A DNA stretch of 64,000 nt from Massilia mucilaginosa. Its GTDB lineage: Bacteria > Pseudomonadota > Gammaproteobacteria > Burkholderiales > Burkholderiaceae_D. Each line of letters opens with the position of its first letter. Position 1 is the first letter of the stretch. The position numbers were made by a program, and so were the translations under genes. Below, piece after piece: positions 23,049 through 53,605 of this stretch. Location of the stretch: contig NZ_WHJH01000010.1 of NCBI RefSeq assembly GCF_011682145.1, positions 62,001 to 126,000 of the forward strand, given 5' to 3'. The notes under the pieces are model-generated. The model did not search any database. It worked only from the letters and a program-made list of their open reading frames with translations, and had not been told where the DNA came from.

Positions 23049-24539
23049 CTACGGCGCGACCACAAGGCGCACCGCGCACAAAACATCACGCCTTGCCGGC
23101 TCACGCATCGCGCACACCCATTGTTTTTCGCCACCGCGGACGAGCATCGCAGCATCCCGCATGGACGACGTCCATTGCGCGGCCAGCCCGACAGCGCCGG
23201 TCACCCCCCAGGGTGATGCAGCGAAGCGCGCTTCGGCACGTGCGTTATTACCCCATGGGAAGCGCCGTCCGTCGGGACCGCGTGCCGCCATTTCCCATTC
23301 ATCGGACGTGGGCAATCTGATTTTGAGGCCGGTTGCTGCGCCTAGCCGCTCGCAGTACGCCACGGCCGCGTCGAAGTCCATAAGCGCCGTGCCTGCCTCG
23401 CGCGCGATGAAGAAGCCGCTGCTGACCACATTGCGGATTGGGTTCGCTACCTGCATCCTGGGCAGCTCCTCGCCAAGCCAATGTGCAAGCGGCGGCACCC
23501 AGCACAAGGCGATGCCGTGCGCTTCCAGCAGAAAGCCGTCCTCGGTAGCGCGAATGCCCGGGGGAACGACGATCGGCGATGGAACCTCGTCCGGCAGCGG
23601 CGTTAGCAGTGAAGTAAGGAACAGGAAGGCCTTTTCGTGATGCGCCACTGGGTCGCCGGCGAGGCACCGCAGCAGGTGATCGTGCATCAACGCCCGGGTG
23701 TTCGGCGGCGCTTCGGACGGGGCTGGAACTGCGGCACCCTGCAGGAGTTCAATGGCGTACAGCTGGATGGTTCGCAACATCCGCCGCTCGTCGGTATTGA
23801 CGCCATCGGCGCTCTCTTGCGGCAGCGCGGTGGTCGCGACCTGGTCCAGCAGCTGATTGGCACGCAGCCTGGCGGCGACCACCAGCGCGGTCAAGCGCAC
23901 CTCCCAATCCGGATCGGCCAGCGCGGTGCGCAGCACGGCATCGATATCCGCGTTGCTCGCGCGACGGTCGTGCCCCAACCAGCGCAGGATCTGCAGCTTG
24001 TTGTAAGTACTGCCAGCCAGAAGAAAAATGAGGGACTGGTCCGGGTTTTCCAGCTTCCACTGGCCCAGCGTGCGCAATGCCGCCCCGCCCTGCTCCGCGA
24101 TCAGGCGCACGCAGGTATGCAGCGCCTGCCGCGCGACGGTGGCACTGGCATCGCTTATCATTGCCGCGACTTCGTCAAGCGACTCGCGAGCCCCGAGCGC
24201 CTCAACCATGCCGAGGCCGAGCAATCGCGACGCCACGTCCGGCGCCCTAAGCAGCTCGCGCGCCCGCTCGACTCCCTCGCATGGCAGGCACGCCGCCAGC
24301 GCAGCCAGCGCAGCCAGCGCCTCGTCGCCGTCCGGTCCCGCGACGCGCAGTTGGCGCATGCCCGTGGCCGGATCGAATTGATAGTAGAGGCGCGCGCCCA
24401 GGCGCTGGAACTCGACGAATTCGGGTTCGTCCTCGATCAGCGGTGACGGCGCTGTCGGATCGGCCGCCCGTTGCCAGCCCTCCGCGTACAAGCGCGCGGC
24501 CAGGTCGGCGAATGGCAGGCGGCGGTCGACGATCAGCAC
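23049..24539 (-). CDS. HEAT-like repeats plus formylglycine-generating-enzyme-like domain
   Basis: A 496-residue protein. Residues about 60-290 are alanine/leucine-rich helices with HEAT-like pairs (for example [23 protein letters not shown]). The C-terminal part resembles the FGE-sulfatase (SUMF1) fold: [54 protein letters not shown] and a final RGG...REPARR...AVRLV. Many proteins with this fold are not formylglycine makers, and the catalytic cysteine pair cannot be confirmed here. GTG 24539 is preferred, since ATG 24578 lies within the preceding gene. It is the last gene of the eCIS operon and ends 2 bp from an IS6 element. Possible roles are modification of, or a recognition scaffold for, the payload. 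Confidence 0.65.
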
Positions 24540-24543
24540 ATTA

Positions 24544-25308
24544 TTAACCCTGTTTTTCCAGGAGCTGCACGCGCGCATGCAGGTCGTCCGCGATATCGCT
24601 CACTTTATCGCCGCGCACGTTGGCAAGAATGCGCGCGAAGTAGAACAAGTCAGGCCACTCGGCCGCATCGGACGCCAGGTGCAGGGGAAACTCCTCGAGG
24701 TATTCCAGCCACGCGGGCTCGATCCAGTCGGCCGGGCGCTGCTGATCAAGCGCATCGGCAAGATAGCGAATCAGCTCGTAGAGATTGAATTCGAGGCTCA
24801 GCACAGGTTGCGCGTACGTTGCCGGCTCCGCGTCGATGAAGGCGCGCGCGGTTGCCGTATCGTGCATGGCCAGCGCAAGCAGCGCAACCGAGCGTTGTTG
24901 CTTGGCGCTGAGCTCCGCGCGTGCGGGTAGCAAAGGTTTCAGCGGCGCGCTGTCGCTAGCTTCGGGACGCGGCACGCCCGTGCATTGCGCCAGCAAGGCA
25001 AAACTCAAGATGCGCTTTGCCGTCTGCGTATGCTCCAGCTCGAAGCTGTCGAGCGCCGCCAGCGCGTTCGGGACAAAGGGATGCATCAGTAAAATCAGTG
25101 GGCGCGCTTCGGCGTTGCCGCAACACAGAATGGCGCGCGCCAGCACCATGTCGACGCCCGCGAAGGTGCCAGCCAGCACGTCCGTTTCACGGTCGGCAAT
25201 ATCGGCCAAGTTCGATAACTGCGCCTCAATCAAGCCAGGCATGATAGGCGCGTGTTTCGCCAGCAACGCATGCCAGCTGATGGCGGCTGGGGCGCTCGGG
25301 CGATTCAT
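24544..25308 (-). CDS. Hypothetical helical protein downstream of the payload gene
   Basis: A 254-residue protein rich in Ala/Leu with predicted alpha-helical character throughout. It has no signal peptide, no membrane segment and no motif I recognise. It starts 10 nt after the giant payload gene and is followed almost at once by the HEAT/FGE gene. In toxin-bearing injection loci this position is often taken by an immunity protein, loading chaperone or adaptor; any of these is an inference from position only. Confidence 0.6.
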
Positions 25309-25318: not shown

Positions 25319-28300
25319 TCATGGATTGTCCTCCGGTTTTAAAAAGGTCATCGCGCCGTTCGCGCGATCGTGGATCAGAATGTTCTTCGCCCTCTTCCCT
25401 ACCTTGGCATCTTCCCTTAATAGCTTCAGGACCTCGTCCCGCGTGGCGGGATCCAGGTGACTCATCTCAAGGATAATCTTGCGCTGCCCTGTGGCGCCGA
25501 CCGGGGCGGGTGCGTAAAGTTGTTTGACGATTTTCGCGGCCACAGCCTGTGCGGTCGGTTGGTTCCCAAGCGCTCCCGGCGTCAGCACTTCAAATAATAC
25601 TCCAGAACTGTCGACGAATTGGCCCTTTCCCTTGGGATGCGGACTCACCACGCCGTTGGTAAAACTGCCCTCCGCCCGGAGCATCGCCTCGGCGCGCCGA
25701 TGCTCCGGCGAATTCGCCCTGGCGCCCTCCCCGGCCAGCTGCTCCAAACGCACGGATGGTTTGCCGATGTTGTCGCGGCGCCGTGCCTCCTTGCGCACGG
25801 ACGTGCGCGCACGATCGGTCACCGTCGCATTCATTGGAACGTGCACGACCTTGACATTGCCTGCGTCCTTGCCCTGAACGCTAATCTCGAGATCTTTTAT
25901 GATGCTTGAACCAGGGTGATCGCGATGGCCGAGCGGCGTATCCGGAGTCGTGTGAATCTGGATCTCGACATTTGGTGATTTCTGAGTCAAAGCCTGAAGC
26001 GCCAGTGCCTGATCCTTGGCGGAAATGCCGAGTTCGTCCGCTGTTGCGCTGTTAAGACGTTCTCTCAGGTCCCTGAGGTTCTTCTTGAACCCGTCGCCCC
26101 GCACGGCGGTGAAGCTCTCCAGGCTGAGGCCGCTGGGCTGATTCTTCGCCTCCACGATCACCACGGTCGCGGTCCCGTCGGCATTAATGCGAAGGAAGAC
26201 ACCATCGAAGCCATTGTCCGATGCATTGTGCAGCGCGCTCTCGTTGATCTGCGCGCGACGCGTGCCCGCCGCAGCCTGCCGGGCCTTGACGTCCACCTTT
26301 CCTTCCAGCGTCATCATGCCGCCAAACGCCCCTTTCTCAACGGTCATGCGTGATGCTGCTTCACCCACCTTGCCGCTGCCGTGCTTGCCGGATAGCTCCG
26401 AACCACGAATCACCCAGCGCTTTTCGTGCTTCCCGGTCGCTTTGTCGAAGGACCGCGTCTCCTCGTGGACCACCGCAATCAGATTATCCGCATCATGCAC
26501 GACCACACGCCGGTAGTAATATCCGCGTTCCTGCCACTCGTGCCCGATCTGGTAGACCTTCGTGTCCTTGCTGGCCAGTGGGCCGTTGTCCACCAGCGTG
26601 AGTGCATGTTCGCGCATCCCCTTGGGGCTTCGTTCGGGAGCCGTGGTCGCAACCCCTTCGATGAGTGGGCGGTCGGGCCTGCCCGTGTTCGCGACATAGC
26701 CGCGGCCCGGCTGCTCGCGCAGTTCGGGCGTATCGAGCACATGCTGGTATTCGTCAATTTTCGCGCTGAGGTGATTGATCTCGCTGACCAGGTCCGCGTG
26801 CGCTTCGGGGCTCAGTGTGCTGTCGCCCAGCCGCTGCATGCGCTCGTGGATGATCCCCGGCAGCTTCTCCAGTTCGAGCTTGGCCTCCCATCCATTGCTT
26901 CCGACGCTCGTGAGATTGAACCAGTCCTTGGCCTGGCGCAGCTTGCCGAGCAAGCCCTGGTAGCGGCGCATGCTCTGGATGGTGTGCGCGTGTAACAGCA
27001 CATCGGTGGGCGTCGCGCGCGGGCCGACTTCCACGCGCACGCCGTGACCGGGTCCGCGTGGATCGGGAATGACATGCACCGAATTGCTGTCGAGGTCTGT
27101 GTTGACGCTCACGTCGACGCGCTCGGTCAGCGTTTTAGGCAGGCCATCGCGCAAAGCCTGGGTCGCGGGATCGATCGCTGTGTCCGGATGCGTGCCTGCC
27201 TCGCCACGGCTTGCCGTCTCCGCGGCAGCAGCGAGCTGCCGCTGTTCACCAACCAGCCCGCGACTTTCGACCTCGGCCTGCGCGCGCTTCATCTCGGGCG
27301 AATTCATGACCTCGTGGGGGGGCGCGTCCGGATTGGTTGCGCGGTGCTGCGCGCGCGCGTCGTTGAGGATGCGGTTCGCTTCGGTCAGCCGCCCCTCCGG
27401 CGTCGACAGACGGACGTGCGACCTGGCCGCGCCGTACGCGGCGCCCGCCCCTTGCATCAGCGCGCCCATTTGCACGGCGCCTTTCACACCTTCGTAGGTC
27501 CCTGCGGCCAGATTGAGCAGCGGGTTGCCTTCCCAGGTCTTGTCGTTGAGGGCCGTACCGGCGAACGAGGAAGGCAGTGCACTCACCGCGTTCTCGATGC
27601 CCTCGGCCAGGCCTTCTGCCAGGATGCGCAGCGCCTTGCTGTCGCCCTTGGCCATGCGCGCGAGGATGTTGGTGCCCTTGATCCCGCGCGTCAGGAATCC
27701 GGATTCCATTTTGTTCAGGTTTGAAGCGACCTTGCCGGCGACCTGGCCTGCACGGCTTTTGGCGACGCTCTGCATGATGTCGCTGCCACCGGCCTTGCCA
27801 ACCAGGCGCATCAGGCGGTTGGGCTGCGCCACGCGCGCGGCCGCCTGTTCACCCGCGCCAGTGGCGCCGCGCAGCAGTTTGCCGCCCATGCCGGCGGTGG
27901 CCGCGGAGGTGATTGCATCGACCACGCCGACCGCCAGGTCGACACCCATGTCTTCCACACCGTACGAGCCACCCTGGACCAGCGCCTTGGTGCCCATGGT
28001 CGTGATGGTGGCGGCGACCGAGGCGATCACGGCGATCACCACGGGGCCGAGCGCGCCGCCGCTGAAGAAGGTGAGCGCGGAGCCGAGCGCCACCGCAACC
28101 ACCATGCTGGCCACCTGCGCGGCCAGGTTGGCCACGCTGTCGATGGCGCGGCGGTGGTCTTCGACACCCTGCTGCACCAGCTCGACGCGATAGTCGAGCC
28201 GCTCGCGCAGCAGCTCGCGCTCGTCATCGGACAAATCGCGCCGGTCCAGATCGGACTTGAGTTCGTTCAGACGGCCCATCTGCACGGTCAACCAGTCCGC

Positions 28301-31300
28301 CTCCCTGCCCGCCGCCGCGCCACCGAGCACGCCGGTCAGCTCGCCGAGCTCGCGTTTGACACGGCGCTGTTCCTGGTCGATCCTGGCCTTGGCCGATTCG
28401 GGGGCGCCGTGGTCGTACATGTCCAGGATGTCGGATGCATCACGGCCGCTCAGCTCGTCCGCCAGCAGCTGGCGCAGACTTTGATCCTTGTGTTTCGCCT
28501 TCCATTGCTTGTCCAGCTCGTCGATTTCGGACTTGGTCATGCTGCCGATACGGGTGCGTAGCGCCTGTTCGTCGGTGCCGTCACCCTTGGTGGCGTAGTC
28601 GACTTCCTGAAACGCGTCGAGCCGGCCACCCTGCTTGTGCAGGTCGCGGGCCTTCTCCAGATCGGCGCCCGACATGTTCGCTTCGATGGTGTACGACAGC
28701 GGATAGAAGTATCTTTTCTGGTAGGCGTCGTTCAGTACTTCCATGCTGATGTTCGAGCGGAGATGCGCCTCCGCGCCGATTTCGCGCTCCATGACGCGCT
28801 CGAACGCCATGATCTTTATGGACAATTCCTGCTCGGTGATCTGCGGATCCTGTTTCAGGATCTCGTTGCGGTAGCGGTCCACGCGCATCTTGCGCGCCGG
28901 CCCCTGGTCGAGACGGGTATCCTGCAGCGCATTCTCGTACTGATTGGTCAGCACCTTGTTGATGGCTTCATCGCTGGCCCACACCCCCTGGCGTTCTATC
29001 TCGATGCGCGCGGCATCGGCCTTGACCATGTCGCTGTCGGCCAGCGCATTGGCCAGATCGCGCTCGGGGCCAGGATCCATCTCGCTGGAGAACGCGCGGC
29101 GCAGCACACTGGTGCCCGCAAGCCCTGGCTCGTTGTACTCCTCGACGTTTTCATAGCGCTTGTTGAACTTTGCCTCGATCAGGGCGCTGCGCCGGCGCAC
29201 CTCGGCCTTCATCTGCTCGGCACCCCAGCCCTCGCGCTGCGCCTGCGCCAGCACGTCGGCGTGCACGCGCTTGTAAGTCGCCTCGATATCCTCTTCCTTG
29301 GTGCCCCACCCCATGAAGCCGCCGCGCATGGCCTCGTCGATCTCGATGGCGGCGGCAGCTTCCTTGTCGCCGGCGATCAGTGCCTTGGCCTGCTCCTGTT
29401 CGTTTCCTTCATCGAGGTTATCGAGCAGCGCCTTGTTCAGTTCCTTCCCATAGCGCCGCTTGTACTCGGCGCTGATCTGTTCGATCTCTTCCTGCGATCT
29501 GCCGCGCAGCAGATCCATGATCGCCTTCTCGTCGGTGTCGATGATGCCGAAGGCATAGTCCAGCGCCGCTGCGTCCGCGGCCGCGCCCTTGCCTGCCAGG
29601 CGCAGCTCGGCCTGATCCATTTCGTCAGAGTCAAAGGCCTGCGTCATCGCCAGGTCCATGTCGATGCCGTGCTTGGCGCGATACATCCGGCGCACCAGCG
29701 TTCCTTCGAATGCCGACAGGCCTTCAAGGCTGCGCAGCATCGCCGATTCGTCGCTGTCGAAGTTGTCGAGCTGCGCATGCACCTCCATGACGATCTTCGG
29801 TCCATCGAAGGTCGGGCGCATTGATTTCGCCATTTCGGCCACGTTGTCGAGTGAGCCGTCCGGCTGCGCCAGCAGTTCGGCGTCGAACGCCGGCCTGGCA
29901 ACGTCGACGTACTGCCTGGCCAGCCGCTGACGCAGCGCCCCGGCCGCGATGTCGAGCTGGTGGGCCCCGGCCGGCTGCGCGAAATACTCGGTGACGACCG
30001 CGCGCTGGTCTTCCGTCAACCCTTGGCTTTGCAGCAGTTGTTCCTTGGTCGCACCGTTCGCAACCGACTGCTGCACCGCCGCGACGCTGCCCAGATCCGC
30101 GTTGATGCCGTTACGCGTCTCTTCCGTGCGATTCACGCTCCACTGCTCGTTGGATTTCTGCGCATCGCCGAACCAGCGCCCCAGCTTTGCCTTGAACCGA
30201 TCCCACCAGCTCTGCCCCTCGAGAATACGGTCCTCGGCCCACAGGTTTGCGGCGTCGATGGCGTCGTTGCCCGCTATTTCGACGGCCGCACGGTTCTCGC
30301 GCGTGGTGTCGCGCGCCGTCTTGAACAAGGGCCGCATCGCAGTGCGAACCGTCTGCACGGCCTCACGCGCGGCGGCCTGCAGCGCCGCGGCGAAATCGGC
30401 AAGCTTGCGCACGATCTCGGGCTTGCTGCGATCGTGCGGAGCGGCCGGCGGCGCCGGGTTCAGTCCCTGGTACTGCTCGCGCTGGGCCAGCGCGTTAAGC
30501 GCCTCGACCCGGTCGGTTTGCGCCGAGCCCAGTTCCTTTTCGCGCTTTTCGCCCGCCTTCTGATAGTTGGTGGTCTGCCGGTTGACGTGAGCGCGTACCC
30601 AGCGGATCACCAGGTCGCGCCGCGCGTTGATCACTTCCGGATCGCTGCCGCCGGTGGCCGCTTCCTGGCGCTTGATGATTTCTTCGTCGGTAAGCTGGCG
30701 TGCGCCTTCAATTTGGTCCAGCGCTTCCTGGCCGGTCTCCGATACGCCCTGGGTGGCCTTCTCATGGCTGGCGGTGATCGCCTTGTTGATGTCGGCAGCC
30801 TCTTTTTCGAGCTCCGTCTTGCGCGTCGCGACCATCTGGTCGAGTTCAGCGCCGCTCACACCTGCCGCCGTGGCGATCTCGCGCAGCTCACTGTTCATGC
30901 GCGGGCCCAGCGTGCCGCTCAACGCGCTGCCGATGTTCGGGAAGTACTTCGTATTCTCGCCCCTCGGGTAGACCAGGCGTCTGAGCCGCACCAACACATC
31001 CGCAGTGGCGCTGTCGCTCGATGCGAGCAGGCGGGCGACCACATTCGCCACGGGCGTGCCTTGGACCGGCGGTAGCGGTGCAATGCCCAGCGGGCCCTTG
31101 TCGATCAGCGGCGACGGCGGCCCGATTGCCCGCGCTGGCTCCTCCTTAATCGGCTTGGCAAGTGCGGCGCGCGCGTCCTCGAGGGCCTTGCGCTCGGGAT
31201 TATTCTTATCTTCGGGGATCTGTGCCAACGCCTCCGCGCCCTCGGTCGACAGCAGCTGCACCCATTTGTCCCGAACGGCCCGATCCCCGATGGTCGGCAT

Positions 31301-32209
31301 GTTGCCGCCCACCCGCAGGCCCGGCACCACCTCGATTTCCGCGCTCTTGCTCAGTTCCGGAAGGAAGGCGTGCGGAAGCGTCTTGCCGGAGGCCGCTTCG
31401 ATCGCGGCTGTGAAATTCGGAATCGGATTGCTCCTGGGCGCCGGCGGCGGCTCTGGCACCTTCGGCGGCGCCTGGATATTGGCCGCCGCATCGGCCGCCA
31501 CGTTGCTGGTCTTGGCGCGCCGATCCGCGTTGGCTTTGTCGGCCGCGGACGTGATCTTTCCCGGGCCACCGGCGAGCGCCGACATGTTGCGCCGCGGCAG
31601 AGCGGCGCTGGAGCTGGATACGCCTGCCTGCCAGCGCTGCACGATCACGCGCGGATTCGGGACATCGCCACCACCGTCGCCACGGTCGACACCCTGCGTC
31701 GCGCCGCCGTGCACCGTTTTGCCCGAGGGCGCGGTTGTCCCGGTATCGAGCTCGATGACCTCCTCTTCCTCGGCCGGCGCTTCTTCTTTCGCGTCATCCT
31801 GCTGACGCGCCTCCTTGTCGGCTTCCTCGCTACGCTGAGTTGATGCGTCATCCCAGGTTTCGGCCCGCGCCGGCTTGGGCAGCGCTGCCTTCGCGCCAGT
31901 GTCGGGTGTGCTGGTGTCTTTGTCGGCAAGGTCGGACGCGACCTGCGGTTGTGCCTTGACCGGATCGTCAGCGACAGGTTTATCGGCATCATGCGCGGTG
32001 ACGATCTCTGGCGGCATGAACAAGATACGCGTGCCGTTGCCGGTGCCGGCAGCAAACGGCGCCGCCTGCGATGAGAATGACACGTAATGGGCGGCCTGCC
32101 CGTTACCCATCGAAATGCGTATGTCCGAGTCGCTAACCGCCGGCGCGGCAACGGCTGGGGCACCGGGCCGCCGCCTTTCCACACCTTTTTTCCGCGCATC
32201 GCCGCCCAT
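25319..32209 (-). CDS. Giant putative eCIS payload with annexin-like repeats and possible nuclease motif
   Basis: A 2296-residue protein, the largest in the window. N-terminal about 300 residues: low-complexity, Pro/Ala and acidic. About 450-800: long charged helices. About 810-1280: up to five annexin-like repeats, clearest as DTDEKAIMDLLRGRS...YKRRYGKEL (about 890) and GTDEQALRTRIGSMTKSEI (about 1210). About 1365-1450: hydrophobic, Gly/Ala-rich membrane-type segments (ASMVVAVALGSALTFFSGG, VIAVIASVAATITTMG). About 1990-2020: GFDGVFLR...VVIVEAKNQ, a D...ExK arrangement like PD-(D/E)XK nucleases. The final 150 residues are another alpha/beta region. It sits just after the AAA+ ATPase gene, the usual place for eCIS cargo. 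Domain names are motif-level inferences; toxicity is untested. Confidence 0.7.
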   Translation of the reverse strand: MGGDARKKGVERRRPGAPAVAAPAVSDSDIRISMGNGQAAHYVSFSSQAAPFAAGTGNGTRILFMPPEIVTAHDADKPVADDPVKAQPQVASDLADKDTSTPDTGAKAALPKPARAETWDDASTQRSEEADKEARQQDDAKEEAPAEEEEVIELDTGTTAPSGKTVHGGATQGVDRGDGGGDVPNPRVIVQRWQAGVSSSSAALPRRNMSALAGGPGKITSAADKANADRRAKTSNVAADAAANIQAPPKVPEPPPAPRSNPIPNFTAAIEAASGKTLPHAFLPELSKSAEIEVVPGLRVGGNMPTIGDRAVRDKWVQLLSTEGAEALAQIPEDKNNPERKALEDARAALAKPIKEEPARAIGPPSPLIDKGPLGIAPLPPVQGTPVANVVARLLASSDSATADVLVRLRRLVYPRGENTKYFPNIGSALSGTLGPRMNSELREIATAAGVSGAELDQMVATRKTELEKEAADINKAITASHEKATQGVSETGQEALDQIEGARQLTDEEIIKRQEAATGGSDPEVINARRDLVIRWVRAHVNRQTTNYQKAGEKREKELGSAQTDRVEALNALAQREQYQGLNPAPPAAPHDRSKPEIVRKLADFAAALQAAAREAVQTVRTAMRPLFKTARDTTRENRAAVEIAGNDAIDAANLWAEDRILEGQSWWDRFKAKLGRWFGDAQKSNEQWSVNRTEETRNGINADLGSVAAVQQSVANGATKEQLLQSQGLTEDQRAVVTEYFAQPAGAHQLDIAAGALRQRLARQYVDVARPAFDAELLAQPDGSLDNVAEMAKSMRPTFDGPKIVMEVHAQLDNFDSDESAMLRSLEGLSAFEGTLVRRMYRAKHGIDMDLAMTQAFDSDEMDQAELRLAGKGAAADAAALDYAFGIIDTDEKAIMDLLRGRSQEEIEQISAEYKRRYGKELNKALLDNLDEGNEQEQAKALIAGDKEAAAAIEIDEAMRGGFMGWGTKEEDIEATYKRVHADVLAQAQREGWGAEQMKAEVRRRSALIEAKFNKRYENVEEYNEPGLAGTSVLRRAFSSEMDPGPERDLANALADSDMVKADAARIEIERQGVWASDEAINKVLTNQYENALQDTRLDQGPARKMRVDRYRNEILKQDPQITEQELSIKIMAFERVMEREIGAEAHLRSNISMEVLNDAYQKRYFYPLSYTIEANMSGADLEKARDLHKQGGRLDAFQEVDYATKGDGTDEQALRTRIGSMTKSEIDELDKQWKAKHKDQSLRQLLADELSGRDASDILDMYDHGAPESAKARIDQEQRRVKRELGELTGVLGGAAAGREADWLTVQMGRLNELKSDLDRRDLSDDERELLRERLDYRVELVQQGVEDHRRAIDSVANLAAQVASMVVAVALGSALTFFSGGALGPVVIAVIASVAATITTMGTKALVQGGSYGVEDMGVDLAVGVVDAITSAATAGMGGKLLRGATGAGEQAAARVAQPNRLMRLVGKAGGSDIMQSVAKSRAGQVAGKVASNLNKMESGFLTRGIKGTNILARMAKGDSKALRILAEGLAEGIENAVSALPSSFAGTALNDKTWEGNPLLNLAAGTYEGVKGAVQMGALMQGAGAAYGAARSHVRLSTPEGRLTEANRILNDARAQHRATNPDAPPHEVMNSPEMKRAQAEVESRGLVGEQRQLAAAAETASRGEAGTHPDTAIDPATQALRDGLPKTLTERVDVSVNTDLDSNSVHVIPDPRGPGHGVRVEVGPRATPTDVLLHAHTIQSMRRYQGLLGKLRQAKDWFNLTSVGSNGWEAKLELEKLPGIIHERMQRLGDSTLSPEAHADLVSEINHLSAKIDEYQHVLDTPELREQPGRGYVANTGRPDRPLIEGVATTAPERSPKGMREHALTLVDNGPLASKDTKVYQIGHEWQERGYYYRRVVVHDADNLIAVVHEETRSFDKATGKHEKRWVIRGSELSGKHGSGKVGEAASRMTVEKGAFGGMMTLEGKVDVKARQAAAGTRRAQINESALHNASDNGFDGVFLRINADGTATVVIVEAKNQPSGLSLESFTAVRGDGFKKNLRDLRERLNSATADELGISAKDQALALQALTQKSPNVEIQIHTTPDTPLGHRDHPGSSIIKDLEISVQGKDAGNVKVVHVPMNATVTDRARTSVRKEARRRDNIGKPSVRLEQLAGEGARANSPEHRRAEAMLRAEGSFTNGVVSPHPKGKGQFVDSSGVLFEVLTPGALGNQPTAQAVAAKIVKQLYAPAPVGATGQRKIILEMSHLDPATRDEVLKLLREDAKVGKRAKNILIHDRANGAMTFLKPEDNP

Positions 32210-32215: not shown

Positions 32216-34342
32216 TCATCGCGGCGGCGAAGCCGTCGCCGCGCCAACGGTGCCGCGAAACCTGGCCAGGTCGGCCGGCGCCAGGATCCGCGCCTCGCGA
32301 TGGAACTGGCGCGCGATCGCCGCCCCGAGATGCTGAGCGGTGATGTATTGGCTGCCCGCATCGACGGCAATCAAGGCGGCCGTGTGGCCGGCCGAAACGA
32401 TGCCGGCACCGGTCAGATCGATATTTGCCAGCGAGCTCAGGTCCAGGCCCGGCTGCAGCGGCGCATCGGCTGGAAACGCGCGCGCCCACAGCCGCAAGCG
32501 CTCCGCCACCTGCGGTCGCGGGAAATGCAGCAGCATGTGGAAACGGCGGATGAACGCCGGATCGATTTCGTCGCGCTGATTGCTAGCCAGGACCGCCAGC
32601 CCGCCGAATGACTCGACCCGCTGGAGCAGGAATCCCACCTCGAGCGCCGCATAGCGGTCACTGCCCTGCTGGATCTCGCCGCGCTTGCCGAACAGCGTGT
32701 CTGCCTCATCGAAGAACAGGATGGCGTGGCTTGCCTCGGCCTCGCGGAAAGCGGCGTCGATGTTTTTTTCCGTTTCACCCACCCACTTCGACACCAGCTG
32801 GGCCAGATCGATCTTTAGCAATGGCAGGTCGAGTTCGCGCGCAATCACCTCGGCCGCCAGCGTCTTGCCGGTTCCACTGTCGCCGGTGAACAATGCCTTC
32901 AATCCGCCACCGCTCATAAGACGCCCGAATCCCCAGGATTCGTTGACACGGGCCAGGGCGCGGTAGAAGCGCGGAATCTCCAGCACCTGGTTGCGCAGGC
33001 TGTCGGGCAGGATCAGATCGTCCGGACCACGGCGAGGCACCACGGCGCGCGCGAACCGCCCGGCGTTCTTCTGCGCCACCATGCGGCAGGCGTCGCCAAC
33101 GCCCGCAGCCTGGCTGCCCTGCGTGCGCGCCACCTGCGCGACGGCCAGCTGCTCGCTGACCGACATGCGATAGCGCGCCGCCAGATCCCGGGCCGCGCCC
33201 GGCGCCAGCGCGGGCAACTGCCGCTGCCACTGGCGCGCGCACATGTCCGCCGTCGGCGCCGCCAGGTTCGCCTCCAGATAGCGGCGAAACCCAAGTACGC
33301 CGGTCGGCCGCCAGGCGTGTTCGCCACTGATGATGACGGCAATCGCGCAATGCTCAAGTTGCGCGGCGACCTGCTCGGCCAACTGCGGATGCGCTTCGTC
33401 CTGCAGGCGGCGCGTCTCCACCCACAGGACACTATCGGTATCGGCCGCCAACGCCAGCGCCGCGGCCAGGTCCATGTCGGGCAGCCAGCGCCGCAGCGGC
33501 CGGCCCGCAGCCTGCGCCACCGCCTTGACGGCGTCGTCGACCGGCGTGGCCGGTTCGCCCCAGATGCCGATCAGATTCGCCGTGCCGCTGCCCAGGGCGC
33601 GCGCCAGTTCGGCCAGCAAGGGGGCTTCGCCAAAACACTCGGGCAGCAGCGCCGGTGCAATCGGCACCAGACTCGCATCGCAGAACAGGTCGCGCCAGTC
33701 GCGGCGCGGATCGGTCAGCGCCTGCAAGGCGCGCGGGGCCAGCCGGCACCCATGGGCGAGTTCGGGTCCGGTGACCTGGTCGGCCACCAGCAGGCCGACG
33801 CGCCGCAGCGTACCGTTGGTACTCAGCGCGACGCGGCGCGCCATCCACTGCGCCTCGCTCTCTGACGTGAGCGCGCTCAGCAGATCGATGCCCGGTAGCA
33901 GGCGCGCCACGTCGTCCTGGATGAAAGCGAAGATGCGCGCGTACGCGCGGTGAAGCTCGGACGCGGCGCAGACCAGAAGCGTGTCGACGTCTGCGCTGTC
34001 GAGCGCGAACGCCGCGGCCACCGAATCGAGCGGCAGCGCCACTCCGAGCGCCGCGGCGCGGGCGCGCAGCCGCGCCTCGTCCTGCTGCTCATCGTCGCGC
34101 AGCCTGCGGGCGGCGCCGTAGACCTGGCGCGCCGGCGGCCCGCCTATCTGCTCGATCAACTGGTCGACGTGGGGATCAGTGATGCAATAGGCCTTCACGT
34201 CCGGCCGGGTCAACGCCTTGTTGAGGTCTTTCTGCGCCGCGACCGCGATGCACAAGGCACGCCGCAGTGGCCGCAAACGCAGCTCCAGATGCTCGAGCGC
34301 GAGTTCAACTAAGGATGCGCAAGGCGTGGCGGCGTGGTTCAT
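32216..34342 (-). CDS. AAA+ ATPase, Afp15/Pvc15-like
   Basis: A 708-residue protein with a C-terminal AAA+ module: Walker A TGDSGTGKTLAAEV, Walker B AILFFDEADTLFG, and a sensor region (VLASNQRDEIDPAFIRRF). The N-terminal half is a long helical and degenerate NTPase-like region. Afp15/Pvc15 ATPases are universal in eCIS loci and are thought to help load cargo or assemble the particle in the cytoplasm. ATG 34342 overlaps the upstream stop (ATGA). It lies directly before the payload gene (6 nt). Confidence 0.92.
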   Translation of the reverse strand: MNHAATPCASLVELALEHLELRLRPLRRALCIAVAAQKDLNKALTRPDVKAYCITDPHVDQLIEQIGGPPARQVYGAARRLRDDEQQDEARLRARAAALGVALPLDSVAAAFALDSADVDTLLVCAASELHRAYARIFAFIQDDVARLLPGIDLLSALTSESEAQWMARRVALSTNGTLRRVGLLVADQVTGPELAHGCRLAPRALQALTDPRRDWRDLFCDASLVPIAPALLPECFGEAPLLAELARALGSGTANLIGIWGEPATPVDDAVKAVAQAAGRPLRRWLPDMDLAAALALAADTDSVLWVETRRLQDEAHPQLAEQVAAQLEHCAIAVIISGEHAWRPTGVLGFRRYLEANLAAPTADMCARQWQRQLPALAPGAARDLAARYRMSVSEQLAVAQVARTQGSQAAGVGDACRMVAQKNAGRFARAVVPRRGPDDLILPDSLRNQVLEIPRFYRALARVNESWGFGRLMSGGGLKALFTGDSGTGKTLAAEVIARELDLPLLKIDLAQLVSKWVGETEKNIDAAFREAEASHAILFFDEADTLFGKRGEIQQGSDRYAALEVGFLLQRVESFGGLAVLASNQRDEIDPAFIRRFHMLLHFPRPQVAERLRLWARAFPADAPLQPGLDLSSLANIDLTGAGIVSAGHTAALIAVDAGSQYITAQHLGAAIARQFHREARILAPADLARFRGTVGAATASPPR

Positions 34343-36171
34343 GGCCCGGCAAACTCGATCCGCCGGCCTGGCCACCAGGGAATGTCAACGATGTCGCGCA
34401 GCAGTCCGTGCTCGCTCAGATCCATGAAGCGCCGGCCCAGCGCCGGGCGCACCAGCACCCTGCCCTCCTCGATACTCACCGTGCCGCCCAAGTCGCCGAA
34501 GCGCCTCAGTGCCAGCAATGGCTGGGTGGGCTCGCGCTCGCGCCACAAGGTGTCGGCCAGGTCACCCAGCGCGCTGCATAGGGCGAGCGTGATCGAAAAC
34601 TCCGCCGCCCGGCATATATGGCCGCGGTTGGGCAGCACCAGTGGCCGCTGCTCGATGAATTCCGAGTGCGTCGCCGTGATTAATTCGTGCGCTTCGTCGA
34701 AGACGCGATGCAGCTGCGCGCTGTGGCGCCGCAGCAGAGGCTCGTTGGTCCATAGCCCGTCGCCGGCGCTGCGCCAGCCGGCGGCGCGCGGACTCGCTCC
34801 CATCGCGATGGCACGCAGGCCACGCCGCCCAAGTGCCTCGGGAAGTACGCAGTCGGCGACGCCGGGGGCCAGCCACCACATCTGGCCAGGCAGCAAGTCG
34901 GCCACCCGCAGCACGCCATCGGGATCGCCGAACCACCCGAGCGGCTGTGACGAGCCGATATCGAGGACCGCCCACACGCCGCCTTCCAGCCGCTCGACCA
35001 GGACGCCCGGTCCTGTGCGCGCCGCGCGATCTGTCGGCCACAGCGAAGCGTCCAGCGGAGCGCAGGCGCTCGACAGGCCGCGCAGAAAATCATCCATGCG
35101 GGCGTTGTCGGGCGCTTCGTCCCGCCCGCACATCACCGCCGCGAGCCGCTCGGTGGCGGCACTGCGGGCCCAGCCCCGACTGGGCGGCGGTGCAAGCTTG
35201 TACGCCAGCGCCGCCGCAAAACAGCCCGACTGCGCGAGCAGAGCGCTGCATGCCAGGGCGGCGCGCAGGCCAGCAAAATAATTCCGACGCGAGAGAATGC
35301 CCATCACGATGAACGGCAGCACCGATTCGACCACCACGCTTTCGCGGCGCGGCTGGCGCGCGGGCGACACGCGCGGCCGCAGATCCGGGGAACGCAGCGC
35401 GCCGCGCGGGGCACGATCGGCTGCGACCTTGGCCCGCGTGGCATCAGCCAAGGGCCGCGCCGGCACGCTTGGTGCACTACCGCCACCGGCTTGGTCCGCG
35501 CTTGCACGTGCCTGCAGCGAGACAAGCGCCGCGACCAGAAGGTCGATTTCATCGGCCAACGCTGCGGCGCTTGCGCCGGGGTCGCCGAGCGTGCCTTCAA
35601 TTCGCTCGATCAGAGGCACCAGAGCGGCGCCAGCGCGCGCACGGATGGCGCCGGTGGCCCCGAGCTCGGCGAGCATTTCGCGCGCCCACACCTGCAGGGT
35701 GGCGCCATCCGCGGTGGCGAGCATGCGCGTCAGACTGCCCGCGTGCTGCCATGTCGTCAGCGTGTCGGTGACAGTGGTTGGCGACACCAGCTCGCTTGCC
35801 GTATTTTGGGCCGGCACAGTCTCTGGCATGTGGCTGGACGCGGGCAGCTGGCGCGGAACGTCCTTCAGTGCCTCCGCCAAAATCGTTTGCGCGCGCTGCG
35901 CCAGCGCGCCGCGCGGGGCATCACCGCCCTGGTGTGCGGCGTCGGCGGGCCAGTCGCACAGCTCCGACAGCCGCACCGGAATGCGCAGGTGCAGGCGCTC
36001 AATGGTTTGGTCCGGCGCGCAATCGGCCAGTTGCGCGGCCAGCGCGCGCATCAGCCAGGCCGGCAGATGTTGGGTCGCCTGCGCCACCAGCCGGCGCGGG
36101 TCCGCGCCCCAGCTCCAGCCGCCGTGGCGCAGCAAGCGCAGGCGGCAATGCCGTATGCGGATCGCCTCCAC
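34339..36171 (-). CDS. Probable eCIS tape-measure-type protein
   Basis: About 610 residues starting at GTG 36171, one base after the preceding stop; ATG 36219 lies inside the upstream gene and is less likely. The N-terminus (IRIRHCRLRL, then LVAQATQHLPAWLMRALAAQL and IERLHLRIPVRL) resembles the start of the CIS tape-measure family, which has a short beta-strand, helix and strand pattern. A hydrophobic stretch (FAGLRAALACSALLAQSGCF) lies near residue 310. It occupies the Afp14 position, just before the ATPase gene. Function is assigned mainly from position and size. Confidence 0.5.
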   Translation of the reverse strand: MEAIRIRHCRLRLLRHGGWSWGADPRRLVAQATQHLPAWLMRALAAQLADCAPDQTIERLHLRIPVRLSELCDWPADAAHQGGDAPRGALAQRAQTILAEALKDVPRQLPASSHMPETVPAQNTASELVSPTTVTDTLTTWQHAGSLTRMLATADGATLQVWAREMLAELGATGAIRARAGAALVPLIERIEGTLGDPGASAAALADEIDLLVAALVSLQARASADQAGGGSAPSVPARPLADATRAKVAADRAPRGALRSPDLRPRVSPARQPRRESVVVESVLPFIVMGILSRRNYFAGLRAALACSALLAQSGCFAAALAYKLAPPPSRGWARSAATERLAAVMCGRDEAPDNARMDDFLRGLSSACAPLDASLWPTDRAARTGPGVLVERLEGGVWAVLDIGSSQPLGWFGDPDGVLRVADLLPGQMWWLAPGVADCVLPEALGRRGLRAIAMGASPRAAGWRSAGDGLWTNEPLLRRHSAQLHRVFDEAHELITATHSEFIEQRPLVLPNRGHICRAAEFSITLALCSALGDLADTLWREREPTQPLLALRRFGDLGGTVSIEEGRVLVRPALGRRFMDLSEHGLLRDIVDIPWWPGRRIEFAGP

Positions 36172-36172: not shown

Positions 36173-36691
36173 TCAGGGCACCGGTTCCGTGACGATGCGT
36201 GGGGTATATCCCGGCGCAAGAATCACGACAGTGTAGCTGCCCGCGCCCAGCACCAGGCTGACCATGCCGACTGCGCTTGCCTTGGGAATGGGCACGGCGC
36301 GCAGCGCCGGTTCCGCCAGCGCACCGCCCGTCAGATGCACGAACACCTCGATGTCGCTCGGCGTCGTGAGCGGCAAGGTGACCGTGATGCTGATGCCGTC
36401 CAGGACCACGGCCAGGGCGGCGCCGTCACTCTGCTGTTCCGCGCGCAGATCGTCGGTCAGGGCGAACAATTGCGGGCGGTAGAGCAGGCGCGTGTCGTAG
36501 TCGACCAGCGCGATCATCAAGTGACTCTTGTCGATGAGCGCCTGCAGCCCGGCATTTTGAGTGTCGCGAACCACGATGCCGTTGGCGACCACGTCCTCCA
36601 CGGTGAGCGCCTGGTCGGGCTGGGTGCTGCGAGTGGCGGCGCCCAGCACGTGACTGGTGGCCTGAAAGGCGACGACGTTCATCTTGTTCAT
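36173..36691 (-). CDS. Small eCIS-locus protein, beta-sandwich-like
   Basis: A 172-residue protein without recognised motifs. The C-terminal half alternates strands and ends SYTVVILAPGYTPRIV, similar in style to carboxypeptidase-regulatory or other small beta-sandwich domains. The start ATG 36691 overlaps the upstream stop (TGATG). It has no signal peptide. Lying between the third fibre-position paralog and the putative tape-measure gene, it may be a minor structural or fibre-accessory component. Confidence 0.55.
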   Translation of the reverse strand: MNKMNVVAFQATSHVLGAATRSTQPDQALTVEDVVANGIVVRDTQNAGLQALIDKSHLMIALVDYDTRLLYRPQLFALTDDLRAEQQSDGAALAVVLDGISITVTLPLTTPSDIEVFVHLTGGALAEPALRAVPIPKASAVGMVSLVLGAGSYTVVILAPGYTPRIVTEPVP

Positions 36692-37854
36692 CAGGCACCC
36701 TCCGCAGGTTTGACGAAACCCATCACCACGTAATCGCACACGCCGGGAAGCACCAGCGCCCCTGACGCGCCTGCCGTTGGCACCCATCGGACCAGGCACA
36801 CGACGCGGCGGCCGTCGACCCGGCAGTCGAGTGGCTGCATAAGCCAGTACTCTCCGGCCGCGAGTGGCGGCAATGAAGCCGGTTGCTGATAACGCGGCTG
36901 CACCTGGATCTGGAATGACGCTTCGCCGTCGTCGACCTGCGCCTGGGTGATACCCGCCGGCAGCGGCACCTCGAGGCCATCACTGATGACGCCCGACTCG
37001 ACCTGCACCCCGCCAGCGATGGCGCCGAAGATCCTGCCTGCGGCGAACACGTCGCCCTGGGCATTCACGGTGAACACCGGCTCAACCTTCCCCTGGCTGC
37101 CGTGCAGCCCGAATCGCAACTGGCCGCCATCGGTGTTGTCAATGACCAGTCCGGCTTTTTTGGATTCGCTGCGTGGCGCCGAGCGCAGCACCAGGCTGTC
37201 GCCCAGGCCCGTGACTTCGCCGGCGCGCGCGCCGACATAGCGGCGGGTGATACCGCTGCCGCTTATGTCGGTATTGCGCACCTCCACGAAGCGCGTGCCA
37301 TTCCAGCTCACGTAGCCGAGCAGGAGTCGCCACGGCTGTTGCCCGCTGCCCACCGGCGCATCCGGATCGGGCACCTCCTGCTGATCGAGTTCTGCCGCCG
37401 TCCCAAGCCTGCCAAAGCTGATCACGAACGACTCGCTGACCCGCGCGGACGGATTCTCCAGGCACATGGCATTGCGGTGCCCCGTGGTGCTGGTCTGCTC
37501 ATCGCGGCCGTTGATGAATACCGGGTAGAAGTGCTGTTCCGGATCGTTGGCGCTGTCGGTGATGTTGCGCTGGTCGAATTCGTCCTCGCTGACGCGGACC
37601 GCCTCGGTCACCACGATCTCGCGGCCCGCGCCGTCGGTGGCAAGGCCAGGCGACACGGTCACTTCGATGTATGGACCGAGCGTATCGGTGCGCGCCGTGC
37701 CGATCAGCTCAAGCCCGTAGGCGATGCCCCAGCTGTGCAGGTATCGGTCGTGGCGCGCGCGTGCGCTGCGCGCATGCGATACGATGGCGTTGACGTCGGC
37801 GGCGCTGAGGATCTGGTTTTCCGCGAACACCGGCCTGCTGATGGGGGTAGTCAC
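36691..37854 (-). CDS. Fibre-position paralog 3
   Basis: A 387-residue protein. Its N-terminus (ILSAADVNAIVSHARSARARH, then WGIAYGLEL, VSPGLATDGAGREIVV) is homologous to the N-terminal domains of the two genes transcribed just before it; a second shared block ends ARVSESFVISFG. The middle contains peptidase-free beta-rich sequence (VIDNTDGGQLRFGLHGSQG, FAAGRIFG) of the kind seen in phage fibre or tip proteins. It overlaps the preceding gene by 4 nt. Function is unknown; the place in the locus corresponds to the Afp13 fibre gene. Confidence 0.7.
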   Translation of the reverse strand: MTTPISRPVFAENQILSAADVNAIVSHARSARARHDRYLHSWGIAYGLELIGTARTDTLGPYIEVTVSPGLATDGAGREIVVTEAVRVSEDEFDQRNITDSANDPEQHFYPVFINGRDEQTSTTGHRNAMCLENPSARVSESFVISFGRLGTAAELDQQEVPDPDAPVGSGQQPWRLLLGYVSWNGTRFVEVRNTDISGSGITRRYVGARAGEVTGLGDSLVLRSAPRSESKKAGLVIDNTDGGQLRFGLHGSQGKVEPVFTVNAQGDVFAAGRIFGAIAGGVQVESGVISDGLEVPLPAGITQAQVDDGEASFQIQVQPRYQQPASLPPLAAGEYWLMQPLDCRVDGRRVVCLVRWVPTAGASGALVLPGVCDYVVMGFVKPAEGA

Positions 37855-40175
37855 TGCGGTTTCCTTTTCTCGAGCGCGTCGAGACGTTTGGTCAGTTTCG
37901 CATTGGCCTCGCGCTGGGCATCGAGCTCCTGCTTCAGGTCCATGAACACCTGTGCACCAGACAGCGCTTGCGGCGACAGGCGCTTGTCGATCTGGTCCGT
38001 CACATCCCTGAACTGCGCTTCGACCTCGCTGCGCACCAGCTCCGAGGCGGGACTCGACGCGAAAGCCCTGGCCACGGCGTCGCTGCCCTTGATCCGGAGC
38101 GTATCGGTGTCGGTGTAACGCGCGGCCAGCGAAGTGATAACGGGATCGCGTGCGGTGACGCGCCCGACATTGGCGCCGATGTTAAGCGAGCTACGCACGT
38201 CGTTGACGTCAAGACCGGTGAGCCGCACCAGGTTTGGAAATGCCTCGCCAAACGCGCTCAGATCGCCGAGCCGGCTACCCGACTTGAAGAACGCGGTCTG
38301 CTTCTTGAGCGCCCCGTGCGTGCTTGACAGCTCGTGCGGATTTGGCGCCGGCGTTGGGGAGTCGCGACGAAAGCGATCGGCGAAGTCGCAGCACAGGCGC
38401 TCCAGGCCCTCCCCGAAGGTGTGCAGCAATGGCATCCAGTAGCGCAGGTTATGTTCGGTCAGCAGGAAGGTGCGCTCCAGGTTGCAGATCTCGCAGACAT
38501 TGCAGTCGTCGATCCGCACGCATGCGAGTTTGACCGCGGCATCGTCGCAGGTGGGACACGGCGGCAGCAAGGCGGCGCAGATACAATCGAGCAGGTAACG
38601 AATCAGGGCGCGCACCAGTTTTTGCGTTGCACGCTGGGTTTCTTCGGTACTGTCCTCGCCGCCGGGAATGTGGATCGCCTCGATTTCCGTCGCAAGGCAG
38701 CATTGGCCGGTAGGCGGGCATTCATCGATCTTGCGCAGCAGCCAAGCCTTGAACTCGGCCAGCGACTGGTGCGCCTGCTGGTTGGCCGCCGGAGTGGCGA
38801 CGCCGTTATAGGCGTAGACATAGGCCTGCTGCGAGCGGGCTTCGGGTTCGGCGAGGTCCGGATTCGCATACTTGAGCGTCTCGGCGATGATCGAGCGTGC
38901 CATCGTACGTTCGAAGGTCGACGCCAGCAATTGGTCGGCCTGGCTGCCCAGGGCGGGCGCGGCCTTTTCGAGCGTCTCCCGATTGGTCGCCATCGCGGCG
39001 TCGAGACCGTGGTGTGCCGCCAGCGTCTTGACGCGCTCGTCGGGCGACAGCATGTTAAAGCGCGCCGTGGCGGCGCCGACCGCGTGCACCTTGTCGAGCG
39101 CAGCGCGCAGTATCTGCTCCTGCAACGGCCCCGGGTCGCTGGCCTTCATGAACTCGGCGGCCACCTTGCCAAACGTCGCATTGGCGCCACTGATCAGCGC
39201 AGCATCCTCGGCGCCGAACGGCGGCGGCGCCTTGAGCTTGTAGGCGGCGACGCCAAGTTCATTGCGCTGCGCATAAACCTGGGTACGCTCGAGGGCCGCC
39301 GACTTGCGGTCGGTTTCGCGCAGATCGCCGATGCAGCATTCCAGCCGATCGATGAAGGTCAATGGCGCGGGGTCGTCGGCGGGGCAGCGCAATTCGAAGG
39401 TGAATCCTTCGCGTATCCGGCTCGGCTGGCAAGTGACGGCGCAGGAATCATCCTGCGAATACGGCGCCACCAGGTCGCCAGGTTCCTCGCAATAGTTAAG
39501 GTACAGGCAATAGCGCCGTCCGCGCGCGCTGGCCTGGCCATCGGCCGGCACGCTTGATGCTTCCGCCGTGCCAGCGGTCCCTGCGGTCGCCGTACCCGTC
39601 GCCCCGATGCGTGACTGCTTGCTGCGATCCTTGACCGGCGCGGCGCATGGATCGCCACAATCCTGGCCGTGCAGCGAGATCCGGAGCGCACGCACCATCG
39701 CGTTGATGTCGAGTTCCACGGCGCAGGGCACGACAATCTCGTTGCCGCAGCAATCGACCGCATACCCGGGCTGCACGATGACCCGCCCTCCCGGACAGGG
39801 AGCGCAAGTAACGGCCAGACCGCAAGCCACGCCGCTACCCACCAGGAAGCGGTTGTGCATGCGCTGCCTGGTGACGACGTAGTTGGTCAGCGCCTGCAGG
39901 TCGTCGTCGGTCAGCAGCTGGCCGGCGAAGAAGGAAGGCCGTACCATCACGCCGGCGTTGCAGCCGCAACTGCCGCCGGACGATCCGCAACCGCAGTCGC
40001 CGCCGCCGGAACCGGCGCAGCCACAACCCGCGCTTGCCCCGCTGGTTCCGGCAGCACGACCCGCCGAGCGTACTCCCGCCTGATAGCCACTCTGCGGCCC
40101 GGCGCCGATGCCACGGCTTTTGGAACCTCCGCCAGCGCAGCCGCAGCCCCCGGACCCGTCTTTATTGGTAGTCAT
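37851..40175 (-). CDS. Fibre-position paralog 2, cysteine-rich
   Basis: A 774-residue protein. The first 75 residues are Gly-rich with four CGC pairs (Cys 11/13, 51/53, 61/63, 70/72). The shared domain follows (FFAGQLLTDDDLQALTNYVV, GSGVACGLAVTC, VQPGYAVDCCGNEIVV) and then the second block (RIREGFTFELRC). A further cysteine cluster (CPTCDD, DCNVCEICN) near residue 610 looks metal-binding. The C-terminus has coiled-coil heptads (LDAQREANAKLTKRLDALEK), suggesting oligomerisation. ATG 40175 has GGGAG 8 nt upstream. Probably an outer structural protein; this is inferred from locus position. Confidence 0.7.
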   Translation of the reverse strand: MTTNKDGSGGCGCAGGGSKSRGIGAGPQSGYQAGVRSAGRAAGTSGASAGCGCAGSGGGDCGCGSSGGSCGCNAGVMVRPSFFAGQLLTDDDLQALTNYVVTRQRMHNRFLVGSGVACGLAVTCAPCPGGRVIVQPGYAVDCCGNEIVVPCAVELDINAMVRALRISLHGQDCGDPCAAPVKDRSKQSRIGATGTATAGTAGTAEASSVPADGQASARGRRYCLYLNYCEEPGDLVAPYSQDDSCAVTCQPSRIREGFTFELRCPADDPAPLTFIDRLECCIGDLRETDRKSAALERTQVYAQRNELGVAAYKLKAPPPFGAEDAALISGANATFGKVAAEFMKASDPGPLQEQILRAALDKVHAVGAATARFNMLSPDERVKTLAAHHGLDAAMATNRETLEKAAPALGSQADQLLASTFERTMARSIIAETLKYANPDLAEPEARSQQAYVYAYNGVATPAANQQAHQSLAEFKAWLLRKIDECPPTGQCCLATEIEAIHIPGGEDSTEETQRATQKLVRALIRYLLDCICAALLPPCPTCDDAAVKLACVRIDDCNVCEICNLERTFLLTEHNLRYWMPLLHTFGEGLERLCCDFADRFRRDSPTPAPNPHELSSTHGALKKQTAFFKSGSRLGDLSAFGEAFPNLVRLTGLDVNDVRSSLNIGANVGRVTARDPVITSLAARYTDTDTLRIKGSDAVARAFASSPASELVRSEVEAQFRDVTDQIDKRLSPQALSGAQVFMDLKQELDAQREANAKLTKRLDALEKRKPQ

Positions 40176-40192
40176 GTGTATATCTCCCGGGA

Positions 40193-53600: not shown

Positions 53601-53605
53601 GGTTG

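What the first reader, a model, noticed from the sequence alone, without database searches (positions are those of the whole stretch)
25319..32209. 2296-residue payload candidate with annexin-like repeats
Up to five repeats with the annexin pattern ((G/D)TDE...I...L..R...(E/D)I...Y...YGK.L) precede a Gly/Ala-rich membrane segment in a protein encoded next to the eCIS ATPase gene. Membrane-binding repeats plus a hydrophobic segment suggest that the protein inserts in or crosses a target membrane after delivery. This architecture is, to my knowledge, not described for an eCIS cargo.
Basis: partly seen in the sequence, partly recalled or inferred. Interest (0 to 1): 0.8.

Follow-up and report, generated by a model that had tools for sequence, protein, structure and literature searches.

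The report
eCIS-associated toxin with annexin repeats
A bacterium that carries a syringe-like injection particle also encodes, at the end of the same gene cluster, a giant protein with annexin (membrane-binding) repeats, a hydrophobic segment and a swappable toxin-like end, which is probably a cargo; this kind of protein was outlined in print in 2012, and the new part is that its body is conserved across distant bacteria while the toxin end changes.

Summary
The ORF 25319-32209 (-) encodes 2296 aa with annexin repeats (Pfam PF00191, E 1.2e-12). AlphaFold plus profile comparison give four supported repeats and one degenerate repeat, then a hydrophobic segment. The gene lies 6 bp after the AAA ATPase gene of an eCIS operon. 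The novelty claim does not hold: Zhang 2012 described annexin domains in PVC/eCIS toxins and proposed that they help breach target membranes; Kodavali 2014 and Geller 2021 add to this. What I add is a family view. Eight lineages share a body of about 1660 residues beside eCIS genes (for one, only an ATPase and one more gene are visible). The C-termini fall into five kinds, and homology stops near residue 1845. The window's own C-terminus, shared only with the Steroidobacteraceae lineage, has an E...D...ExK nuclease-like motif, but its structure model is poor. An adjacent small gene tracks that C-terminus and may be immunity. Best reading: an eCIS-delivered polymorphic toxin with a membrane-binding delivery chassis. 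Cargo status, lipid binding and nuclease activity are inferred.

The parts
31655..32209 (-). residues 1-185: low-complexity, Ala/Pro/charged N-terminus, outside the shared homology; candidate loading region
   Evidence: sequence; pairwise homology with the closest relatives starts near residue 185; net charge +5 over residues 6-21, mean hydropathy -0.49 over the first 35, no aromatic in the first 8
29813..31654 (-). residues 186-799: N-terminal part of the shared chassis, no Pfam family
29597..29803 (-). annexin repeat R1 (803-871), GxGT replaced by NFDSD
29375..29587 (-). annexin repeat R2 (875-945), best Pfam stretch, GxGT replaced by IIDTD
29039..29365 (-). annexin repeat R3 (949-1057), GWGT kept, second and third helices lengthened
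28634..29029 (-). degenerate repeat R4 (1061-1192) whose second and third helices are about 40 residues each
28409..28615 (-). annexin repeat R5 (1199-1267), GDGT with acidic residues at +40 and +41
27986..28138 (-). hydrophobic Gly/Ala-rich segment (1358-1408)
   Evidence: a segment at the corresponding place in 8 of 8 lineages
27914..27964 (-). YGxExxGxDhxxGxhDA motif (1416-1432) used to find the family
26675..27172 (-). conserved pre-toxin block (1680-1845), end of the shared chassis
25319..26674 (-). variable C-terminal region (1846-2296), in the set compared shared only with the Steroidobacteraceae lineage; toxin candidate
26144..26245 (-). E1990...D2002...E2020-x-K2022 motif, PD-(D/E)XK-like
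   Evidence: motif class partly recalled; weak HamA match E 0.018, under cutoff, in the homologue
24544..25308 (-). 254-aa ORF, candidate immunity gene
   Evidence: homologue only in the one other lineage with the same C-terminus
23049..24578 (-). 509-aa protein, FGE-sulfatase domain plus sub-cutoff HEAT-type matches, recurring neighbour
32216..34375 (-). eCIS AAA ATPase with winged-helix domain
36691..55725 (-). eCIS structural genes: two sheaths, tube, CIS_tube+LysM, hub, spike base, gp25, two baseplate J, Tail_P2_I and unassigned ORFs

Best explanation
It is a polymorphic toxin of the eCIS type. An N-terminal region brings it to the particle (inferred). After injection the annexin tract holds it on a membrane with acidic lipids (inferred from fold), the conserved hydrophobic segment inserts (inferred), and the C-terminal domain, a probable nuclease, is brought to or across that membrane to act on nucleic acid (inferred from motif). 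Shown here by sequence and models: the annexin repeats, the chassis of about 185-1845 shared by relatives, exchangeable C-termini, the recurrent place beside eCIS genes, and a neighbouring gene that tracks the C-terminus and may protect the producer.
For: Annexin identity: (50 of 50 listed Foldseek hits are annexins or chains fused to annexin). Family: 7 of 23 loci found by a motif outside the annexins encode homologues, and 7 of 7 of those genomes have an annexin match over the Pfam cutoff; an eighth homologue is in Roseomonas marmotae. C-termini: homology ends near window residue 1845 unless the C-terminus is of the same kind. PT-HINT in 3 lineages (2 over the cutoff, Roseomonas 27.0 of 27.7 bits); sub-cutoff Ntox4 in Paracoccus (21.2 of 25 bits). 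The Saprospiraceae homologue bears two eCIS_core/DUF4157 stretches, E 1.2e-62. eCIS structural genes beside it in 7 of 8 lineages, in the eighth an ATPase and one further eCIS-cluster gene before the contig begins. Precedent for a 2247-aa CIS effector with hydrophobic regions and a nuclease C-terminus: Tme (PMC11126660, passages).
Against: No DUF4157 in the window protein and none found in its genome. No direct evidence of packaging. The C-terminal model is poor (pLDDT 51), Foldseek finds nothing at E<=0.001 for it, and PDB profile search nothing at E<=10. GxGT is lost in three of the five repeats of the window. The hydrophobic part of the AlphaFold model is mostly of low confidence. Foldseek TM-scores for the annexin model are low, 0.18-0.32 by target.
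Confidence: 0.62

Rival explanations
1. It is a tape-measure-type structural protein of the particle, with the hydrophobic segment acting as in phage tape measures and the C-terminus a side function.
For: Largest ORF of the cluster, helical, long-helix hairpin and hydrophobic segment; tape-measure-related CIS effectors are known; I did not identify another tape-measure gene in the window.
Against: No tape-measure family in Pfam or PHROGs; lengths from 2100 to 3464 aa among the 7 intact proteins; HINT and other toxin-type matches at the C-terminus; position at the 3' end after the ATPase.
Confidence: 0.13
2. It acts inside the producer: the annexin repeats tether the eCIS to the producer's own membrane, or the nuclease drives death or DNA release of the producer.
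For: Thylakoid-anchored and intracellular CISs exist (title and abstract listings); Tme acts in its producer (passages); in 5 of the 7 other lineages no extra ORF lies between the annexin gene and the HEAT/FGE-type gene.
Against: A candidate immunity gene in the window and Steroidobacteraceae lineages; the C-terminus changes between lineages, which fits conflict with outsiders better (inference).
Confidence: 0.15
3. It is a toxin that merely sits beside the eCIS and leaves the cell by another route.
For: No DUF4157 in 6 of 7 family proteins scanned; chassis distances do not clearly follow baseplate distances (125 and 130 of 2000 permutations reach the observed correlation, 6 lineages each).
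Against: eCIS genes beside it in 8 of 8 lineages of at least three phyla by record titles, an ATPase homologue directly upstream in 6 of 8; chassis and ATPase distances do correlate (r 0.85, 41 of 2000 permutations).
Confidence: 0.07
4. The repeats are chance similarity in a helical protein.
For: Three of the window's five loops have lost GxGT; three of ten repeat pairs do not match each other.
Against: Pfam and PDB scores over cutoff and a family profile E of 1.6e-55.
Confidence: 0.02

Closest known systems
PVC-SS/eCIS polymorphic toxins with an annexin domain (Zhang 2012, PMC3482391; passages seen)
   Same: Annexin domain before a C-terminal toxin domain in eCIS-linked proteins; same proposed role in breaching membranes
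   Different: There a single annexin domain is reported, listed with the PVC metallopeptidase (DUF4157); here four to five repeats, and no DUF4157 in the window protein
Bacterial annexins (Kodavali 2014, PMC3894181; abstract and section 4 read)
   Same: Multi-annexin toxin-like proteins with predicted transmembrane regions, including a Burkholderiales one with a colicin D domain and Haliangium ones with DUF4157; delivery role proposed
   Different: No eCIS link is drawn in the section read; neighbourhoods were said to give no general clue
Annexin PF00191 in the list of eCIS domains (Geller 2021, PMC8213781; passages seen)
   Same: Annexin named as a predicted anti-eukaryotic eCIS effector domain
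   Different: One mention in the main text; no architecture in the passages seen; supplements not readable here
Tme and Sle1 tape-measure-related CIS effectors (PMC11126660 passages; PMC13277306 abstract and section 10)
   Same: Modular CIS effectors; Tme is giant, with hydrophobic regions and a nuclease C-terminus; Sle1-type C-termini differ between relatives, one with a downstream immunity gene
   Different: Neither paper is among the 5 that hold both 'annexin' and 'contractile injection system'; DUF4157 in Tme; other gene order

Membership tests
Annexin (PF00191) | Pfam match over the gathering score | tested here: met
   48.1 bits against 25
Annexin (PF00191) | five-helix repeat fold | tested here: met
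   helix pattern, pLDDT mostly 80-95 in the annexin part; 50 of 50 listed hits are annexins or annexin fusions, though TM by target is only 0.18-0.32
Annexin (PF00191) | compact four-repeat core | tested here: not met
   five units, two with lengthened helices; whole-core superposition is poor
Annexin (PF00191) | type II calcium site GxGT plus distal D/E (spacing recalled) | tested here: inconclusive
   window keeps GxGT in R3 and R5, with the acidic residue near the expected spacing only in R5
Annexin (PF00191) | calcium-dependent phospholipid binding | not testable with these tools
   needs a liposome assay
eCIS-associated polymorphic toxin | encoded at the 3' end of an eCIS operon | tested here: met
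eCIS-associated polymorphic toxin | conserved body with exchangeable C-terminal toxin domains | tested here: met
   five C-terminal kinds in 8 lineages; toxin identity rests on weak, partial or no family matches for several
eCIS-associated polymorphic toxin | DUF4157 in the protein or nearby (common, not universal) | tested here: not met
   present in 1 of 7 family proteins scanned
eCIS-associated polymorphic toxin | cognate immunity gene | tested here: inconclusive
   the small gene occurs in 2 of 2 lineages with this C-terminus and in the fetched stretches of 0 of 6 others; function untested
eCIS-associated polymorphic toxin | packaged in the particle | not testable with these tools
   needs mass spectrometry of purified particles
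Tape-measure-related CIS effector | homology to phage tape measure proteins | tested here: not met
   no such match by single-sequence HMM scan; no profile-profile search against tape measures was done
PD-(D/E)XK nuclease (C-terminal domain) | E...D...ExK on a restriction-endonuclease fold | tested here: inconclusive
   motif conserved in two lineages, fold not confirmed

The most novel reading that the evidence does not exclude
A dedicated annexin-based delivery chassis of about 1660 residues, distinct from the DUF4157 type, serves eCIS particles across several phyla. Five repeats with a long-helix hairpin and a hydrophobic segment form the post-injection translocation device, and the HEAT/FGE-like neighbour takes the place of DUF4157 as loading or release factor while toxin domains and immunity genes are swapped at the 3' end.
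Probability: 0.25. Interest if true: 0.65.

Novelty: new member of a known kind. Interest (0 to 1): 0.4.

Why it matters
How a toxin released by an eCIS reaches or stays in the right compartment of the target is, to my knowledge, little understood. A conserved annexin chassis with exchangeable toxin ends is a natural system in which the role of membrane-binding repeats in that step could be tested, and it turns a one-paragraph proposal from 2012 into a testable family with gene order, a partner gene and an immunity candidate.

Tried and rejected
Searches that gave nothing or little: viral contigs by two alignments and one DNA pattern (0 confirmed relatives); PHROGs; NCBIfam for the protein (one weak unrelated hit); plasmids, one record only, Roseomonas marmotae. 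Annexin in relatives: 1 of 195 family genomes and 1 of 369 class genomes, both times the own genome, while 27 of 195 family genomes have the CIS tube family, so in this sample the annexin cargo is rare even where that tube family occurs. Of the 23 pattern loci, 16 had no tblastn match at E 1e-3 with either query and were dropped. Steroidobacteraceae and Panacagrimonas proteins are 99.9% identical over 1238 residues and were counted as one lineage. The C-terminal AlphaFold model and its Foldseek list are too weak to use. Co-inheritance of chassis and injection genes is mixed: the observed distance correlation was reached by 125 (baseplate J), 130 (Tail_P2_I) and 41 (ATPase) of 2000 permutations with 6 lineages each, and by 834 of 2000 for the hub with 4 lineages; I suspect, untested, that the close Roseomonas-Siccirubricoccus and window-Steroidobacteraceae pairs drive it. 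The eCIS N-terminal features of PMC11297309 (passages) were only partly matched (charge and hydrophilicity yes, aromatic residue no). Extra hydrophobic stretches away from the shared one occur in Roseomonas, Paracoccus and Siccirubricoccus. That GIY-YIG-like letters follow the HINT domain in Roseomonas, Siccirubricoccus and RI_153 is my recall of the motif; no Pfam match supports it.

Full report
What is there. The ORF at 25319-32209 on the minus strand encodes 2296 residues. It starts 6 bases after the end of an AAA ATPase gene that lies at the 3' end of an eCIS operon: two sheath genes, gp19-type tube, CIS_tube with LysM, hub, spike base, gp25, two baseplate J proteins and Tail_P2_I; five ORFs between Tail_P2_I and the ATPase gave no Pfam family at E 0.01, and I assigned no tape measure or fibre. 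The first sheath matches solved sheaths of this kind, best E 4e-137, Pvc2 7e-47, Afp3 1e-45. Two genes follow: a 254-aa ORF without family and a 509-aa protein with an FGE-sulfatase domain and sub-cutoff HEAT-type matches.

Annexin repeats. Pfam gives PF00191 at E 1.2e-12 with three stretches, and phmmer against PDB gives annexin VI at E 2.3e-11. The whole-genome search reports one annexin place at E<=0.001, this one. A seven-row alignment of the core hits annexin VI at E 1.6e-55. AlphaFold of residues 770-1600 (mean pLDDT 71.4) has pLDDT mostly 80-95 in the annexin part and shows five-helix units. By helix order I read R1 803-871, R2 875-945, R3 949-1057, R4 1061-1192 and R5 1199-1267; in R3 and R4 the second and third helices are longer, in R4 about 40 residues each. 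Foldseek's 50 listed hits are all annexins or chains fused to annexin, E 4.1e-11 to 7.9e-7, but the TM-score is only 0.14-0.16 by query and 0.18-0.32 by target, so the units are annexin-like while their arrangement is not that of a classical four-repeat core. Profile comparison of the 10 repeat pairs gives 97-99% for R1-R2, R1-R5, R2-R3 and R2-R5, 50-56% for R1-R3, R1-R4 and R2-R4 (R4 aligning in its second half), and 1-5% for R3-R4, R3-R5 and R4-R5. Ten comparisons with two control segments of the same protein stayed at 4% or less. So R1, R2 and R5 are firm, R3 is supported through R2, and R4 is weak. Among the window's repeats R3 and R5 keep GxGT, and only R5 has the distal acidic residue near the canonical distance, which I recall as GxGT, 38 residues, D or E. 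Calcium binding is possible but reduced.

Hydrophobic segment. Hydropathy over 19 residues exceeds 1.6 at 1358-1408. A segment at the corresponding place, after the annexins and before the C-terminal region, occurs in 8 of 8 lineages. The model is mostly not confident there.

The family. With a DNA pattern from a motif outside the annexins I scanned the genome-contig collection (84,980 species by its description): 23 loci, of which 7 encode relatives; all 7 genomes have an annexin match over the Pfam cutoff. Roseomonas marmotae was found in the plasmid collection. Two of the seven are nearly identical, so with the window there are 8 lineages: window, Steroidobacteraceae/Panacagrimonas, Roseomonas, Siccirubricoccus, bacterium RI_153, Paracoccus, Acidobacteria and Saprospiraceae. 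The pattern is exact, so more distant relatives would be missed. The shared chassis runs from about window residue 185 to 1845 with the closer relatives and starts later (about 260-270) with others. A search with the hydrophobic-plus-pre-toxin part found no further copy in 9 genomes or records at E<=0.001.

Swapped ends. The C-termini fall into five kinds without BLAST similarity between kinds at E 1e-3 in the last 420 residues: window and Steroidobacteraceae (44% identity); Roseomonas, Siccirubricoccus and RI_153 with a PT-HINT domain (Roseomonas just under the cutoff); Paracoccus with a sub-threshold Ntox4 match; Acidobacteria and Saprospiraceae without a usable match. The last also carries two eCIS_core/DUF4157 stretches near its N-terminus, which ties the chassis directly to the known class of eCIS toxins. 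The window protein has no DUF4157, and none was found in its genome with a search that rang in 3 of the 7 genomes tried, the own one included.

The window's toxin candidate. The two lineages with this C-terminus conserve N-E, F-D-G-V-F and V-E-A-K, an E...D...ExK order like that listed for restriction-endonuclease-fold toxins in PMC3482391 (passage). The homologue's piece matches HamA weakly, E 0.018, below the cutoff. AlphaFold with two sequences is poor, Foldseek has nothing at E<=0.001 and PDB profile search nothing at E<=10. Nuclease is therefore a likely but unproven reading.

Neighbours. eCIS structural genes lie beside the gene in 7 of 8 lineages; in the eighth (Steroidobacteraceae) an ATPase and one more homologous gene are visible before the contig begins. 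An ATPase homologue lies directly upstream in 6 of 8; it was not detected in Paracoccus and Saprospiraceae. The FGE/HEAT-type gene follows in window, RI_153, Paracoccus, Acidobacteria, Saprospiraceae and, as a fragment at the contig end, Steroidobacteraceae; Roseomonas and Siccirubricoccus have a shorter relative with weak similarity. The 254-aa gene has a homologue only in Steroidobacteraceae, the lineage with the same C-terminus; Saprospiraceae has an unrelated ORF in the same slot. This is what an immunity gene would look like, but it rests on two lineages.

What is known. Zhang 2012 (PMC3482391, passages) states that several PVC-SS toxins display a single annexin domain, always followed by a C-terminal toxin domain, and that it may aid breaching of target membranes. 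Kodavali 2014 (PMC3894181, abstract and section 4) lists multi-annexin toxin proteins with transmembrane regions and DUF4157 and proposes delivery. Geller 2021 (PMC8213781, passages) lists annexin among eCIS domains. Tme (PMC11126660, passages) and Sle1 (PMC13277306, abstract and section 10) show that modular CIS effectors with nuclease-type or exchangeable C-termini exist. My searches for annexin with contractile injection system, extracellular contractile injection, polymorphic toxin, PF00191 and tailocin listed no other paper that by title and abstract start deals with this architecture; most subscription papers are not in that library and supplements were not readable here.

Verdict. A real, well-supported annexin-repeat protein of the eCIS toxin class. 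The kind is known; the conserved multi-repeat chassis, mostly without DUF4157, the swapped ends and the partner genes are an extension. Cargo status, lipid binding, insertion and nuclease activity are inferred.

Noticed in passing
window 23049-24578 (-): FGE-sulfatase protein with HEAT-type matches that follows the annexin gene in several lineages regardless of the toxin end; possible loader, adaptor or modifier.
   Followed up: partly
L050 3743-9847 and 9540-10631: The Steroidobacteraceae homologue's C-terminal part lies in another frame than the main ORF, so the gene is broken in that assembly; described only, not mended.
   Followed up: no
G568 (bacterium RI_153): 13 eCIS_core/DUF4157 matches in one genome, none in the annexin protein itself.
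   Followed up: no
window 2118-20695 (-): Large ORFs whose terminal residues look by eye like a polyketide or peptide synthesis cluster next to the eCIS; no family search was run on them.
   Followed up: no
window 20500-23000: Stretch of somewhat lower G+C (0.52-0.61) between the two clusters, with an ORF of low GC3 at 20738-21271.
   Followed up: no
window 57280-58317 and 58929-59984 (-): A sigma-54 activator and a trypsin-like protease gene upstream of the sheath genes.
   Followed up: no
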